This document shows, in pieces, positions 2-7,620 of a stretch of DNA of 7,647 nucleotides (position 1 is the first letter of the stretch; every line of letters begins with the position of its first letter). The notes under the pieces are model-generated. The model had not been told where the DNA came from and made no database searches. It saw only the letters and a program-made list of their open reading frames with translations. The position numbers were made by a program, and so were the translations under genes. The DNA is from an uncultured Verrucomicrobiota bacterium (lineage in GTDB: Bacteria; Verrucomicrobiota; Verrucomicrobiae; Opitutales; Opitutaceae), in contig CAMLQS010000244.1 of the NCBI GenBank assembly GCA_946482165.1, positions 1 to 7,647 of the forward strand. Reading direction: 5' to 3'.

Positions 2-808
2 GCGGTTAATGATGGCGGCAGATTACCTGAGCGATTCCCAATCAAGTTCCTCACAGATTTTGGCAAGATCTGGAAGAATCTGAAATGTAGCGAAAATATA
101 AACTTTGGCTACGGGGAAGCGAGGGCCGCAAATTTCACCGACAAAGTCCGAACGACATTGGTTCTATGGGCCTCCAATGAAATAGAGAAGAATATAGAAA
201 TTGTAGGCAAGGTCGTCGGCCTTAGTAACGACCAAGAAAGCAAAATCGACCTAAAGCTTTCCTCCGGTCAAGTCATCACAGGCCCCTATCACGAGTCCGA
301 TGAAGATGATTTCATTAAGGCCTTCAGACACAAGGAAGAGTATTCAATAAAGATCAAAGGCACTGGAGTATTTAATAAACAGGGAACTCTGAAGCGAATA
401 TCCGACATTATCGACGCGGAGCTTCTCGATGCAGAGGACCTTAAACTCTTGGCAGCGATCAGTCGGGTTGAAGCAATGAAAGCGCTACCTGTAGGTTGGT
501 GCGGAGGAAAAGGAACGCCATTGAGCGAAGGATTCGCCGAATGGGCTGTAGATATCCTAAAGCGCCTTGTAGAGGAGCACGGTATGGATGTCCCGTATGT
601 GTTTCCCACGCCCGAAGGAGATATCCAGTTTGAGTGGAAAGCCGAAGGCAGTGCTGTTGACGCGCGCCTTAATCCTGTAACGCTGAATGCGGAGATAATT
701 GGCTACTCCGCCGATAGTGAAGTCGATGAAGTGATTTCACTGGTGCAGAAAGAAGGTCTTGCCCACTTGAAGGGTATTATAGCAAACTTGTTCAAGAATC
801 ATGAGTAG
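2..808 (+). CDS. Conserved hypothetical protein, 3' part only (5' end outside window)
   Basis: The frame is open from the first complete codon at base 2 to the TAG at 806-808 (268 codons), so the gene starts upstream. The TTG at 158 is only an internal start candidate. No signal peptide or membrane segment is visible. Codons about 60-145 look like a small beta-rich domain: alternating hydrophobic strands, a segment like 'KIDLKLSSGQVITGPY', then 'YSIKIKGTGVF' followed by 'GTLKRISDI'. A C-terminal domain from about codon 165 holds 'GWCGGKGTPLS', a helix, and 'VPYVFPTPEGDIQFEWKAEG'. I remember this 'P-x-V-x-PTP-(E/D)-G-x-(I/V)-Q-x-EW' motif from uncharacterised proteins encoded next to a small partner like the gene at 801. 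The stop overlaps that partner's start by 8 nt, so translational coupling is likely. No function can be assigned. Codon use is mixed, unlike the G+C-rich glycosidase genes downstream. Confidence 0.85.
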   Translation, partial: AVNDGGRLPERFPIKFLTDFGKIWKNLKCSENINFGYGEARAANFTDKVRTTLVLWASNEIEKNIEIVGKVVGLSNDQESKIDLKLSSGQVITGPYHESDEDDFIKAFRHKEEYSIKIKGTGVFNKQGTLKRISDIIDAELLDAEDLKLLAAISRVEAMKALPVGWCGGKGTPLSEGFAEWAVDILKRLVEEHGMDVPYVFPTPEGDIQFEWKAEGSAVDARLNPVTLNAEIIGYSADSEVDEVISLVQKEGLAHLKGIIANLFKNHE

Positions 809-1265
809 TGATCAACCGGCTGAGCAGGCTAACGCTAGTCCTGTCGAGGCTCCCTCTGCCTTAGAGGCAATTATTCCGGAGCTTGGACCGCCTTTATCAG
901 TAGGGGATGAACTCCTGTTCAGGAACGCGCGAACTCAGTTTGTGGTGGATGGGCACGTTTCGAGCCAAGTGTTCGAGCCCTCTTCAGACGATCACGGATT
1001 ACTCTCGATGGATCGATCAACTAAAGCCACGCCAAGAGAGTCGTTCGAGCTCTTTTTAAAACGCCCCAATACCATATCGTCAGGGGTGCTCGGCGTAACT
1101 GCCGACGAATGCATAGCACAGCAGGTTCCCGCCCTTGAGAACCCGCTAAGCGATAATCCGGCACATGTCGTGGCAGACTTCCGGGCTCATAACAGAAGCC
1201 AAGGTAAGAGGCGGGCAGGGAAACTACGTGACATCGCATTGGTTCGCGGATGGTTTCATCGATAA
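801..1265 (+). CDS. Small conserved hypothetical protein, partner of the preceding gene
   Basis: This 154-residue soluble protein starts at ATG 801, inside the last codons of the upstream gene, in a different frame; the overlap is ATGAGTAG. Residues 1-33 are a low-complexity Ala/Pro/Glu-rich leader. The conserved-looking body follows: 'DELLFRNARTQFVVDGHVSS' (36-55), 'VFEPSSDDHGLLSMDRS' (57-73), 'GVLGVTADEC' (95-104), 'HVVADF' (122-127), and a basic C-terminal helix 'KRRAGKLRDIALVRGWFHR' (136-154). This matches a widespread uncharacterised family I remember, with a '(L/V)(Y/F)RxxxxxFVxDGxVxSQxFxP' block, a 'GVxxxEC' block and a 'KLRDxAxxRGWxx' tail. The intact family-like C-terminus argues that the stop at 1263-1265 is genuine. 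The overlap with its neighbour suggests the two products work together. The function is unknown; a toxin-antitoxin or defence-accessory role is possible but nothing in the sequence shows it. Confidence 0.85.
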   Translation: MSSDQPAEQANASPVEAPSALEAIIPELGPPLSVGDELLFRNARTQFVVDGHVSSQVFEPSSDDHGLLSMDRSTKATPRESFELFLKRPNTISSGVLGVTADECIAQQVPALENPLSDNPAHVVADFRAHNRSQGKRRAGKLRDIALVRGWFHR

Positions 1266-1623: not shown

Positions 1624-2661
1624 ATGAACAGTAGCGAAATATGGCGGCAGTTGGTTTCTTTCGAAAGTCGTGACGTGGTGACAAGGTGGTTTCGAGACCT
1701 TCACGGTCGCGAATTGAATGGACGTCGGGCGAAAGAGATAGTGGCTGCGGCCAAGCAGGGAAGGGAATATTTTCGTAACGCAGCCGATTCCGCCTATTCG
1801 GTGAGGCCTTTGCTCACATTTTATGGTGTCGCCTGCCTTAGTCGCTCGCTCGTTTTATTACTCAAAAAAAGTGGCGGAGAGGAGACTCTGACAGCGGGCC
1901 ACGGATTAGAGACTGTAAACTGGTCTTCTACTATGTCGGGGGAGGTAAGTGAAGCAATTCAGTCTTTGCCGCGGTTACGAATACGCACTACAGCGGGACT
2001 TTTCTCTGAGCTCGTTCAGCAAACGAACAACCGCGTGCCCATTCATGTAAGGTCGGAAGCGGTTGATTGGAGCATTTCCTACGACGTGCCCCCGCTCGGC
2101 TTTGAAGTTAGCTTTGATGAGCTTTGTGCACGAATTCCCGACCTGAAGATCGACTACGAATCCGCCGGGGGGAGCCCTTTTTACGCAGCGGTTAACGAAA
2201 TTTCGTTTAGCAACGCGCAGGGATTTCGGGCAACATTGAACGGTGCTATCCCGGAACCCCTGCGGGAGTTTCTTCTATCGAACGGCTATAGCGGTCTGGC
2301 TACGGCCGACGCCAAGACGTTTTCCGAGAACACACCACTCTTCATCCATGCTTATATCAGGAAGCTGTTCGGGAAGATCCCAATGCTGCATCTTGCGCGG
2401 CCATTTGGGTCGCGCACGTGCTACTCACAGCTGGCAATCACCTATAAAATCGCTTTCATCTTAGGAATGCTTGTGCGTTACTTTCCGACCCAGTGGATCA
2501 GTCTCTCACAAGGCGAAAAAGGCGATACTTGGTGGCCGACGATCAGCCGGGCTCAGCACTTGGTCGAAACGACCTATCCGGAACTGATCGTCGAATTGTT
2601 GCACGATATCCTGAACGAGGCAAAATTAGGGCAAGGCCTAACCAACGACGGAACTATTTGA
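1624..2661 (+). CDS. YaaC-like protein
   Basis: This 345-residue soluble protein resembles the YaaC-like family. Visible features are an N-terminal 'W-x-x-L-x-x-F-x-S' segment (residues 7-15), a helical 'AKQGREYFRNAA' stretch (43-54), 'RPLLTFYGVACLSRSLVLLL' (61-80), an 'HGL' turn (93-95), a 'G-L-F-x-x-L' segment (125-130), 'IPDL' (171-174), and a C-terminal 'LGMLVRYFPTQW' (280-291) followed by helices. In the family as I know it, the 'RPLLxYYG' and 'SMLxRYxPxxW' blocks are the most conserved, and both are recognisable here. The biochemical role of YaaC proteins is not established. The helical N-terminus is HEPN-like in style, but I see no clear R-x4-6-H catalytic motif. ATG 1624 is the first in-frame start and has no Shine-Dalgarno sequence. 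The gene lies 98 nt before the nuclease fusion gene on the same strand, suggesting a two-gene unit. Confidence 0.75.
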   Translation: MNSSEIWRQLVSFESRDVVTRWFRDLHGRELNGRRAKEIVAAAKQGREYFRNAADSAYSVRPLLTFYGVACLSRSLVLLLKKSGGEETLTAGHGLETVNWSSTMSGEVSEAIQSLPRLRIRTTAGLFSELVQQTNNRVPIHVRSEAVDWSISYDVPPLGFEVSFDELCARIPDLKIDYESAGGSPFYAAVNEISFSNAQGFRATLNGAIPEPLREFLLSNGYSGLATADAKTFSENTPLFIHAYIRKLFGKIPMLHLARPFGSRTCYSQLAITYKIAFILGMLVRYFPTQWISLSQGEKGDTWWPTISRAQHLVETTYPELIVELLHDILNEAKLGQGLTNDGTI

Positions 2662-2691
2662 TGCAGAGACGACTGCCAAGGATATCACGCC

Positions 2692-2707
2692 CCGTCTGTC
2701 GGGACGG
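2692..2707 (+). terminator. Weak hairpin after the YaaC-like gene
   Basis: CCGTC (2692-2696) and GACGG (2703-2707) form a 5-bp stem with a 6-nt loop, 31 nt after the stop at 2661. No T-run follows (the next bases are CTTAAACCC), so efficient termination is doubtful and read-through into the gene at 2760 is likely. Confidence 0.2.
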
Positions 2708-2715
2708 CTTAAACC

Positions 2716-2802
2716 CTTAGCTGCCACTCACGCTACCTGACCCCTTTCGTCTCCCCTTTATGTATTCACCCGACTCCTCTCCCACTCTTCCTCTTAGCTG
2801 CC
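2716..2802 (+). repeat. 10-nt direct repeat spanning the start of the fusion gene
   Basis: CTTAGCTGCC occurs at 2716-2725 and again at 2793-2802, 77 nt apart, the second copy inside the coding region. Between them lie CTGACCCC (2737-2744), the reverse complement of the GGGGTCAG core found at 4416-4423 and 7598-7605, and a doubled CCCCTTT (2741-2747 and 2753-2759) directly before the ATG. The stretch looks repeat-derived, possibly a small duplication or an old insertion scar. Confidence 0.35.
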
Positions 2803-4400
2803 GGGGGCTCTTGGTCGAAGGAGGTGCGTTTAATCTCATTACATCTCCGGATTTAGTCACGGACGGAGTGAAAGTCACTGACGCCTCCTCTTGGGTATTA
2901 TACGATAGTGGCGAGTTGGGCCGTGTGCCAACTTGGCGGGCCGCTCTCGGTCCAGGCGGAGTAATTGAAATTTCTATACCAGTGTCGTTCTCCGGGGATG
3001 ATCTAAACCTGACGGCGAGCTGTTATTGTTGGTCAATGCCTAGGCGGGCATCGTCAATTCTTGTGGAAATAGAAACTTCCGGCAACTCCATTCGACATAC
3101 ATTTCGCACTGACGAACCAGCACAGCGCTTTCATGTATCTTTACCCACCCCTGAGGGTTCATGCCATGCGCTTGTGCGCTACGTAATACGAAATACAGAG
3201 AGCGTAGATTGCATAGCCAATCTCGCATTTCCCAGCGTAGAACGTAGTGCATTCGCATCAAGCCCAGTTCATCCGGGGGAACAGCGAAGTCCGGAGCTGA
3301 TGGACATCAACGATGGCAGTATATTTGGGGGAGCGGCGTCTGGTGCGATGTTTCTCACGTTTTTCCCATTACTCGATTCCCATAAGTGGAACACTAAAAA
3401 AGATGGATGCGTGATCGGCGGACTCTCGAATGATTCATCGTTTGGTATCGAAGTATTTATCTCGGGCTCGACCGGCAAGCTTGGCCTCTCAATAGCAGAT
3501 GGGGACGTTCGTCGGCGGATTGAATTGGACAACCGGCCAATGGCTGATTGCATCTGCGGGATCGCCTTACTGTGGAACGGCCCCCAGCTCGAATTAATGG
3601 TGGACGGCAATCCAACTGCCAAGATTGACGATTTAAGACGAGATCTAAGGGATCTCGCCAAGGTTAGGATTGGAAATCACCCGGCCGACTGCATGAAGCC
3701 GGCCCATATCGTGGTGCGGAGAATTCAGAGCTTTCGCGTAAGGCTGGAACAATGGGAAGCGCAGGCCGTTTTCGCGGAGCTCGAACCCGAACGATACCGC
3801 CATTATACCCCGATATTAAATCGATTATTAGAAGCTAATATCAAGCGGTGGCCAAGCGATCTGCTTGGTCTATTAATGAAGATTCCGACGCGATGGCAAT
3901 CGCTGCCCCCGCTTTGGGCATCAAATCCATCGGACGAAGGCGTTTTCCGGGATGACGTCGCAAACATGATCGGACTACTGAGTTGGACAGCCTCCCCTGA
4001 ATCAAAATGCATCGACGGGCGAACTGATCTCTTGGCAGTGGACAACCAGGGCAGACGCATACGGCTGGAATTTAAAATCTGGGGTCGAAATGATTATGCT
4101 GACGTTCCATTGAAACCAATGAAGTATATGACCGAGGATGAGGACGTTTGTGTGGTGATAATGCTAAATAAAAATAAATCAACAATCGACCGGGAATATG
4201 TTCGAAATGTCATAGCGGGCCCCACCAACTGCCAGCGGCATATTGAAGTCCCTTTTGGCGATTCCGCCGGGCCATTTCATTTTATTTCAGAACATGAAGT
4301 GAGCGGACGGCGTATTCATGTGTTTCACATTGTTTTCAATCTGCATAAGCCAGTAAACCGCTCGACTATAATCCAAACCTTAGGCGGAGATGCGAATTAA
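2760..4400 (+). CDS. Beta-sandwich/ConA-like protein fused to a PD-(D/E)XK nuclease-like domain
   Basis: This 546-residue protein has no signal peptide or membrane segment, so it is probably cytoplasmic. Residues about 65-160 look like a beta-sandwich. Residues about 185-330 resemble a LamG/concanavalin-A-like fold: alternating strands, 'GIALLWNGPQLELMVDGNPT' (267-286) and a closing 'VVRRIQSFRVRLEQWE' strand and helix (318-333). After a helical linker, residues 390-480 match a restriction-endonuclease-like domain: helix 'EGVFRDDVANMIGLL' (393-407), 'GRTDLLAV' with candidate metal ligand D423, 'RLEFKIW' giving E437-x-K439, then 'VCVVIMLNKNKS' (463-474). I remember a related arrangement, 'GKTDILI...ECKFWKG...LIIFNRNK', in uncharacterised prokaryotic nuclease-like proteins. 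ATG 2760 is the first start after an in-frame TAG at 2718, but it is preceded by pyrimidines, not a ribosome-binding site. With the YaaC-like neighbour it may form a defence-type module in which the lectin-like part senses and the nuclease acts; that is inference. Confidence 0.75.
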   Translation: MYSPDSSPTLPLSCRGLLVEGGAFNLITSPDLVTDGVKVTDASSWVLYDSGELGRVPTWRAALGPGGVIEISIPVSFSGDDLNLTASCYCWSMPRRASSILVEIETSGNSIRHTFRTDEPAQRFHVSLPTPEGSCHALVRYVIRNTESVDCIANLAFPSVERSAFASSPVHPGEQRSPELMDINDGSIFGGAASGAMFLTFFPLLDSHKWNTKKDGCVIGGLSNDSSFGIEVFISGSTGKLGLSIADGDVRRRIELDNRPMADCICGIALLWNGPQLELMVDGNPTAKIDDLRRDLRDLAKVRIGNHPADCMKPAHIVVRRIQSFRVRLEQWEAQAVFAELEPERYRHYTPILNRLLEANIKRWPSDLLGLLMKIPTRWQSLPPLWASNPSDEGVFRDDVANMIGLLSWTASPESKCIDGRTDLLAVDNQGRRIRLEFKIWGRNDYADVPLKPMKYMTEDEDVCVVIMLNKNKSTIDREYVRNVIAGPTNCQRHIEVPFGDSAGPFHFISEHEVSGRRIHVFHIVFNLHKPVNRSTIIQTLGGDAN

Positions 4401-4413
4401 CCAGGACACAGAA

Positions 4414-4423
4414 ACGGGGTCAG
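4414..4423 (+). repeat. Junction motif ACGGGGTCAG
   Basis: This 10-mer occurs again at 7596-7605, where foreign sequence breaks the GH59 gene. Its core GGGGTCAG is present in reverse at 2737-2744. All three copies lie at gene-free junctions. I associate GGGGTCAG-type sequences with repeats around IS200-like/REP-associated tyrosine transposase genes in other bacteria, but no such gene is in this window. Confidence 0.45.
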
Positions 4424-4450
4424 AGACGAATGGCGCTAACGAGGGACAAA

Positions 4451-4523
4451 AGGAGTCAGGCCGTTGTTTGCTGTTTTCCGCAGTCTCATTGGCGCAAAAT
4501 CAACAAACAACCGGCCAGGTCCT
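4451..4523. repeat. 73-nt imperfect inverted repeat (REP/MITE-like hairpin)
   Basis: The left arm 4451-4481 and right arm 4492-4523 are reverse complements over most of their length. AGGA pairs with TCCT at the outer ends, the GTTGTTTG block (4463-4470) pairs with CAAACAAC (4505-4512), and the TTTT / AAAA and CGC / GCG blocks close toward a 10-nt loop (4482-4491). A few mismatches and one-base bulges interrupt a stem of about 30 bp. The right arm ends on the base before the GH35 ATG at 4524. There is no T-run after it. The left arm shares GTCAGGCCG with 7601-7609. It may be a REP-like element, a small non-autonomous insertion, or a terminator or attenuator-like structure; the mosaic setting favours a repeat element. 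Confidence 0.7.
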
Positions 4524-7308: not shown

Positions 7309-7620
7309 ATGAAAAGCCCCCATCATTCACCTCGCTCCGTTTTCCGCGCCGCAGCCCTGTTCATCCCCCTTCTCGCCGCGTCACAGTCGCTTCATGCGGC
7401 CGCCCCGGCCACGGTCGTCAACATCGACGGCAAGGGCCCGTCCCGCCCCTACTACGGCATCGGCCTGGTCAACTCCAGCGGCAGCTCGAAGCTGTTGCAG
7501 GATTATCCGGCCGCCCAGCGGCGCGAGATCCTCGACCTGCTGTTCAAGCCCAAGTTCGGGGCCGGCCTTCAACTGGTGAAGAACAGACCCAACCGACGGG
7601 GTCAGGCCGATTGTTGTTAG
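7309..7620 (+). pseudogene. GH59 galactosylceramidase-like gene, cut after codon 91 by inserted sequence
   Basis: ATG 7309 opens a signal peptide: 'AAALFIPLLAASQSLHA', with probable cleavage after residue 30. Residues 48-91 follow the start of the GH59 barrel: 'YYGIGLVNSSGSSKLLQDYP', then 'REILDLLFKPKFGAGLQLVK'. This lines up with my memory of human GALC ('DGIGAVSGGGATSRLL...[25 protein letters not shown]'). After K91 (AAG, 7579-7581) the expected 'VEIGGDG' is absent; 12 unrelated codons and a TAG (7618-7620) follow. GH59 enzymes are normally several hundred residues long, and both catalytic glutamates lie far beyond this point, so no active enzyme can be made. At most a short secreted peptide results. 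The rest of the gene may lie beyond the inserted sequence outside the window. The intact enzyme would act on beta-galactosides alongside the adjacent GH35. Confidence 0.85.

What the first reader, a model, noticed from the sequence alone, without database searches (positions are those of the whole stretch)
1624..4400. Possible undescribed two-gene module: YaaC-like protein plus lectin-fold/PD-(D/E)XK nuclease fusion
The gene at 2760 joins one or two beta-sandwich/ConA-like regions to a C-terminal D423...E437-x-K439 nuclease-like domain. It lies 98 nt after a YaaC-like gene on the same strand. A carbohydrate-binding-type fold on a cytoplasmic nuclease is unusual and suggests a sensor-effector design. 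YaaC has no settled function. The G+C-poorer composition and the adjacent hypothetical gene pair resemble a defence island. The domain calls come from visible motifs and memory; the pairing as a system is inference.
Basis: partly seen in the sequence, partly recalled or inferred. Interest (0 to 1): 0.72.

Follow-up and report, generated by a model that had tools for sequence, protein, structure and literature searches.

The report
Nuclease carrying a phage-tail-like lectin
A bacterium carries a rare gene, in a stretch that looks like an antiviral island, whose protein joins a sugar-binding-type module related to phage tail proteins to a DNA-cutting-type enzyme domain, which suggests, but does not show, a new kind of virus sensor.

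The parts
2..808 (+). PDC-M32A, candidate defence gene, 5' end cut by the window edge
   Evidence: PADLOC E 7.3e-43, profile positions 112-373 of 375
801..1265 (+). PDC-M32B, candidate defence gene, overlaps PDC-M32A
   Evidence: PADLOC E 4.7e-30
1624..2661 (+). YaaC family gene, 345 aa, predicted fold without a PDB match
   Evidence: Pfam PF14175 E 2.4e-27; model pLDDT 90.7; best PDB Foldseek E 0.52
2662..2759 (+). 98-nt gap with a GGGGTCAG-type repeat copy (2737-2746, minus strand); no terminator-like or promoter-like site listed in it
2760..4400 (+). lectin-nuclease fusion gene, 546 aa
   Evidence: open frame; homologues at 56, 52 and 43% identity
2787..3275 (+). residues 10-172: start motif and first beta-sandwich of the phage-tail-type lectin module
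   Evidence: hhalign to the phage jelly roll E 3.1e-4 local (probability 39.5%), 7.6e-5 global (34%); model
3282..3797 (+). residues 175-346: ConA-like / laminin-G domain
3927..4349 (+). residues 390-530: PD-(D/E)XK nuclease-type domain; E393 codon 3936-3938, D423 4026-4028, E437 4068-4070, K439 4074-4076
   Evidence: kept in 4 of 4, and matching residues in 8 of 8 AAA-fused relatives; hhalign E 9.1e-12 over 137 columns

Best explanation
The gene at 2760-4400 encodes a single-protein sensor-effector. The N-terminal two-thirds is a lectin module taken from, or sharing ancestry with, a phage tail protein; the C-terminal third is a PD-(D/E)XK nuclease of a type that elsewhere sits behind an AAA ATPase. 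In the cell the lectin part would recognise something that a phage brings or makes (its own tail or adhesin parts, or a sugar on phage DNA or on the envelope), and the nuclease would then cut nucleic acid and stop the infection. It lies in an acquired, defence-type island with PDC-M32A/B and yaaC, but works without needing yaaC, which is an independent accessory gene. Shown: the architecture, both homologies, the residues, the neighbours, the compositional border. Inferred: nuclease activity, what is sensed, activation, independence from yaaC in action, and any anti-phage effect.
For: Lectin module: hhalign of 4 family members against 12 phage modules, local E 2.9e-7 (columns 130-341, which leave out the motif used to pick the phage set), global E 2.8e-10 over 310 columns; best of 100 column shuffles scores 23.1 against 57.9; reversed, C-terminal, YaaC and AAA controls all at probability 0.3% or less. 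Fold searches agree: best BFVD match a hypothetical Synechococcus phage protein E 9.8e-12, named phage ConA-like lectins from E 7.3e-11; laminin-G/neurexin chains in the PDB E 2.3e-8. Phage set: 4 of 4 module proteins tested match PHROG 5939 'tail protein' best, and 6 of 6 other genes tested on these or sister contigs are head-tail adaptor, tail, minor tail or tape-measure genes. Nuclease: E393, D423, E437 and K439 in 4 of 4 fusions and matching residues in 8 of 8 AAA-fused relatives; E 9.1e-12. The same nuclease domain behind two unrelated N-terminal parts fits an effector with exchangeable sensors. Identity to the window protein is higher in the nuclease (67, 64, 51%) than in the two lectin domains (50, 44, 40 and 52, 48, 37%). 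Island: PDC-M32A/B, GC3 0.50-0.57 against 0.80.
Against: No functional data. PADLOC has no model that hits any of the four fusions. Only four members are known, and the family was not found in 387 genomes of the phylum of G002, 396 of the phylum of G004 or 196 of the order of G953 (the one weak hit in the last is an unrelated laminin-G protein), so recurrence in defence islands cannot be tested. The nuclease part of the model has middling confidence. The two-domain structural superpositions are poor (TM-scores of 0.3 or less on the query in the listed rows, large rmsd). A plain HMM of the phage module does not find the window protein itself significantly (E 5.8; P0006 1.9e-5, P0005 0.016, P0007 0.19), a direct PHROG scan found no tail family, and the first beta-sandwich alone reaches a probability of only 34-40%. 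PDC-M32 is itself only a candidate system.
Confidence: 0.5

Rival explanations
1. First reader's module: YaaC and the lectin-nuclease form a two-gene system, one sensing or restraining the other.
For: Same strand, 98 nt apart, no terminator-like site listed between them; the fusion is so rare that yaaC homologues elsewhere could be a different subset.
Against: 0 of 15 informative yaaC loci carry it; yaaC has different neighbours from locus to locus. Weak: none of the 120 listed YaaC rows has the longest-contig length of P0005, P0006 or P0007, while the window's own pair shows 9355 for both; the P0007 contig is too short to hold both genes. 184 of the 304 YaaC matches were not listed.
Confidence: 0.15
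2. The gene is phage-derived and works for a phage or satellite: a tail-type adhesin with a nuclease domain, or a gene carried by a prophage remnant.
For: The lectin module is of phage tail type.
Against: No phage gene was recognised in the window (four proteins scanned in Pfam, NCBIfam and PADLOC; only the fusion was scanned against PHROGs); tblastn of the window protein finds no match at E 0.01 in the plasmid or phage records, nor did a pattern scan of viral contigs.
Confidence: 0.15
3. A released toxin of bacteriocin type: the lectin binds the target cell and the nuclease kills it.
For: Lectin followed by C-terminal nuclease is the general order of receptor-binding toxins (recalled).
Against: No signal peptide or clear membrane helix in the window protein by hydropathy (peak 1.54; two homologues peak at 1.82 and 1.85, inside the lectin part); no immunity-like gene follows, the next gene being a GH35-type enzyme; relatives of the nuclease domain sit behind an AAA ATPase, which argues for the cytoplasm.
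Confidence: 0.1

Closest known systems
Phage tail lectin proteins of PHROG 5939 / 1419
   Same: Start motif, jelly roll, connecting motif and laminin-G domain in the same order; profile homology over 310 columns.
   Different: Those are encoded beside head-tail adaptor or tape-measure genes; here the module is on a nuclease-type domain in a bacterial island. No direct PHROG match.
AAA_22 ATPase + PD-(D/E)XK proteins (P0008-P0015), near Pfam PDDEXK_9
   Same: C-terminal domain, catalytic residues and the stretch after the last lysine.
   Different: N-terminal part is an ATPase, not a lectin; Pfam PDDEXK_9 is below its cutoff, in 2 of the 4 AAA proteins scanned.
TRIM-type antiviral proteins with a SPRY (concanavalin-fold) domain
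   Same: A ConA-type fold used for viral recognition, as stated in PMC7824862 (three passages seen).
   Different: Analogy only; no homology tested; the effector differs (recalled).
YaaC family, Pfam PF14175
   Same: Nearly full-length match, residues 32-325.
   Different: Window copy has Q where 99 of 119 other listed homologues have H in an R-x4-H stretch.
PDC-M32 (PADLOC candidate defence system)
   Same: Both genes present directly upstream.
   Different: Separate genes; the one paper found names it as a candidate in Sinorhizobium prophages (PMC12429752, two passages seen).

Membership tests
PD-(D/E)XK nuclease superfamily | Catalytic residues E, D, E-x-K in the right order | tested here: met
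   E393, D423, E437, K439 in 4 of 4; matching residues in 8 of 8 AAA-fused relatives
PD-(D/E)XK nuclease superfamily | alpha-beta-beta-beta-alpha-beta core | tested here: inconclusive
   Order present in the model but at middling confidence; blocks 391-500 have mean pLDDT 40-74; PDB matches were filled by the lectin part
PD-(D/E)XK nuclease superfamily | Passes a curated family model (a tool-based criterion, not the biology of the superfamily) | tested here: not met
   PDDEXK_9 E 0.0027 and 0.0047 for two homologues, under its cutoff; none for P0007 or the window protein
PD-(D/E)XK nuclease superfamily | Cuts DNA or RNA | not testable with these tools
   needs an enzyme assay
ConA-like / laminin-G lectins | ConA-type jelly roll | tested here: met
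ConA-like / laminin-G lectins | Binds a sugar | not testable with these tools
   no assay; binding residues not assigned
Phage tail lectin module (PHROG 5939 type) | Profile homology over both domains | tested here: met
   with shuffled, reversed and cross-domain controls; first sandwich alone is weak (probability 34-40%)
Phage tail lectin module (PHROG 5939 type) | Direct hit to the PHROG model | tested here: not met
   no tail PHROG at E 1 or better for 4 of 4 members
YaaC (PF14175) | Gathering score | tested here: met
   96.6 bits against 27
HEPN ribonucleases (considered for YaaC) | HEPN fold | tested here: inconclusive
   no convincing PDB fold match of any kind
HEPN ribonucleases (considered for YaaC) | R-x4-6-H motif (recalled) | tested here: not met
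   R-x4-H in 99 of 119 other listed homologues but R-x4-Q in the window copy
PDC-M32 candidate defence system | Genes A and B side by side | tested here: met
   A (5' end cut by window) and B match their models
Two-gene YaaC + nuclease module | Conserved adjacency | tested here: not met
   0 of 18 yaaC loci, 15 informative; adjacency at the three other fusion homologues not testable

The most novel reading that the evidence does not exclude
A bacterium has turned a phage tail lectin into an intracellular sensor on a nuclease, a bacterial counterpart of ConA-fold antiviral recognition: the captured module detects its own kind (new tail parts or their assembly partners) or reads sugars on modified phage DNA, and unleashes the nuclease. 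If it reads DNA sugars it would be a lectin-guided restriction enzyme.
Probability: 0.25. Interest if true: 0.87.

Novelty: new variant of a known kind. Interest (0 to 1): 0.6.

Why it matters
Many bacterial immune proteins join a sensor to a nuclease, but what most of them sense is unknown. A sensor that is visibly a relative of a phage tail protein hands over a ready hypothesis about the trigger, testable with phage escape mutants. It also points to yaaC, a gene without a function known to me, as patchy, found on phage contigs and a plasmid and in some cases near defence genes, with a predicted fold that has no solved counterpart found here.

Tried and rejected
The two-gene module was tested on yaaC homologues and not supported. 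HEPN membership of YaaC could not be shown: fold searches with a confident model gave nothing convincing. Integron cassette: in the two integron papers opened, the letters 'yaac' were the core-site consensus, not the gene. Scans for the fusion in genome contigs, viral contigs, plasmids and phages found none; the genome and viral scans use exact short patterns and can miss distant relatives, the protein searches scored only the 7992 candidates sharing most words, and the empty whole-genome searches had no positive control. The one weak genome hit is an unrelated laminin-G protein. Ten phage records at E 5-7 are chance-level. A whole-genome view of the host was not possible. No Rfam family in the window. 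Chance-level family hits passed over: thiazolyl_GetA for YaaC, Adeno_PVIII for PDC-M32B, PD-Lambda-5_A at E 0.014 for 1 of 30 YaaC members, toluene monooxygenase chains in the PDB at E about 1. The PADLOC tally around yaaC has no background control, so enrichment is not claimed; of its 123 families 25 were shown, and PDC-S15 and mREase_IV among these were not traced to a locus. PDB fold lists for the fusion were filled by the lectin domain, so the nuclease fold was not independently matched. Literature: searches cover open PubMed Central texts only; searches listed nothing; of the papers listed by 80, 106 and 107 I saw passages of all four and none describes such a fusion; of the 20 listed I opened two.

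Full report
Observation. The window holds, on one strand, two overlapping genes (2-808, cut at its 5' end, and 801-1265), a 345-codon gene (1624-2661), a 98-nt gap and a 546-codon gene (2760-4400), followed by a GC-rich gene resembling GH35 enzymes. Third-position GC is 0.50-0.57 in the first four genes and 0.80 in the two frames that follow, so a compositional border lies between 4400 and the GH35 gene. G001 is the genome of L001, titled a Verrucomicrobia bacterium, and it was among the genomes drawn from the order of the best match. The host is therefore probably a verrucomicrobium.

Neighbours. The first two genes match the PADLOC models PDC-M32A (E 7.3e-43) and PDC-M32B (E 4.7e-30). PDC-M32 is a candidate, not a proven, defence system; the one paper found names it in Sinorhizobium prophages (PMC12429752, two passages seen).

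Is the pair a module? Eighteen yaaC loci were fetched, 15 from genomes and 3 from viral contigs. An HMM of the fusion matches none of the 18 at E 1. Fifteen of the 18 have at least 1.7 kb after yaaC, so 0 of 15 is the fair count. The next genes differ from locus to locus. The converse test, what precedes the three other fusion homologues, could not be run. As a weak hint, none of the 120 listed YaaC rows has the longest-contig length of P0005, P0006 or P0007 (3384, 3545, 1937), whereas the window's own two proteins share 9355; 184 matches were not listed. The two-gene reading is therefore not supported, but not excluded for this small family.

Where yaaC lives. Three of the 18 loci are viral contigs, and one more, L015, looks like a prophage by eye. 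Of 154 neighbours of 120 aa or more within 6 kb, 150 were scanned against PADLOC; ten were scanned again to place hits: Gabija GajA and GajB in L012, PDC-M68A/B in L016, a type II methyltransferase with a weak restriction-enzyme match in L009, and a 2TM effector 67 nt before yaaC in L003. That is at least 4 of 18 loci with a located hit, without a background control. In L003 the 2TM effector is a Cap15-type receptor overlapping a DAC-domain cyclase. The only plasmid match is a more distant YaaC (29% identity) on a mobilizable plasmid beside recombinases, a SymE toxin and DUF4231. None was found in the phage records at E 1e-5.

The fusion protein. Three full-length homologues were found, at 56, 52 and 43% identity; a profile search brought eight AAA_22 ATPase proteins that share only the C-terminal part. 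hhalign confirms that sharing: E 9.1e-12 over 137 columns. E393, D423, E437 and K439 are kept in the four fusions, and the matching residues in 8 of 8 AAA proteins. Two of three fusion homologues, and two of four AAA proteins scanned, touch PDDEXK_9 below its cutoff. The model shows a PD-(D/E)XK order of elements at middling confidence. I take the nuclease assignment as probable at about 0.9; activity is untested.

Are the phage modules really tail proteins? Four module proteins were scanned and 4 of 4 match PHROG 5939 'tail protein' best; 6 of 6 other genes on those or sister contigs match head-tail adaptor, tail, minor tail or tape-measure families. A review of jumbo phages says that laminin-G3 and SPRY lectin domains occur on tail fibres and other virion parts, and that SPRY serves viral recognition in TRIM proteins (PMC7824862, three passages seen).

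How it most likely works. Shown: a phage-tail-type lectin module joined to a domain with PD-(D/E)XK residues, no signal or clear membrane segment in the window protein by hydropathy, in an acquired island with a candidate defence system. Inferred: the lectin part senses a phage component or a sugar, and the nuclease then acts. The nuclease domain occurs behind two unrelated N-terminal parts, and it is better conserved than the lectin (67, 64, 51% against 50, 44, 40 and 52, 48, 37% identity), which is what a fast-changing sensor on a steady effector would look like; four sequences cannot prove it.

Novelty. No Pfam or PADLOC model describes the fusion in any of the four members at a curated or useful level, no PHROG does, and NCBIfam, where only the window protein was scanned, does not. 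The paper searches named in Tried and rejected found no description of such a fusion, within open texts. Sensor-nuclease proteins are a known kind (recalled); the use of a phage tail lectin as the sensor part would be a new variant. Interest is held at 0.6 because the family is tiny and nothing about function is tested.

Noticed in passing
L003:69-2207: A DAC-domain (DisA-type) cyclase gene overlaps a Cap15-type 2TM effector gene, followed 67 nt later by yaaC: a signalling defence cassette with yaaC as a possible third gene.
   Followed up: partly
1624-2661: The YaaC family gives a confident model (pLDDT 90.7) with no convincing counterpart found in the PDB.
   Followed up: partly
2737-2746, 4414-4423, 4450-4459, 7596-7605: Copies of a GGGGTCAG-type repeat sit at or near gene borders, on both sides of the fusion gene; the pattern has seven near matches in the window (three others at 2878, 4024 and 7301), a number reached in 1 of 200 shuffles. 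Possibly a small mobile repeat; few were seen in nine fetched loci checked.
   Followed up: partly
7309-7620: A secreted-looking reading frame (GH59-like from memory, not tested) ends early just after one of these repeats.
   Followed up: no
L028 (plasmid of Eleftheria terrae): A YaaC gene follows DUF4231 and a 'GTP cyclohydrolase II' gene on a mobilizable plasmid with SymE and recombinases nearby.
   Followed up: no
P0008-P0015: A family of AAA_22 ATPases ends in the same PD-(D/E)XK domain as the fusion; its role is unknown to me.
   Followed up: partly
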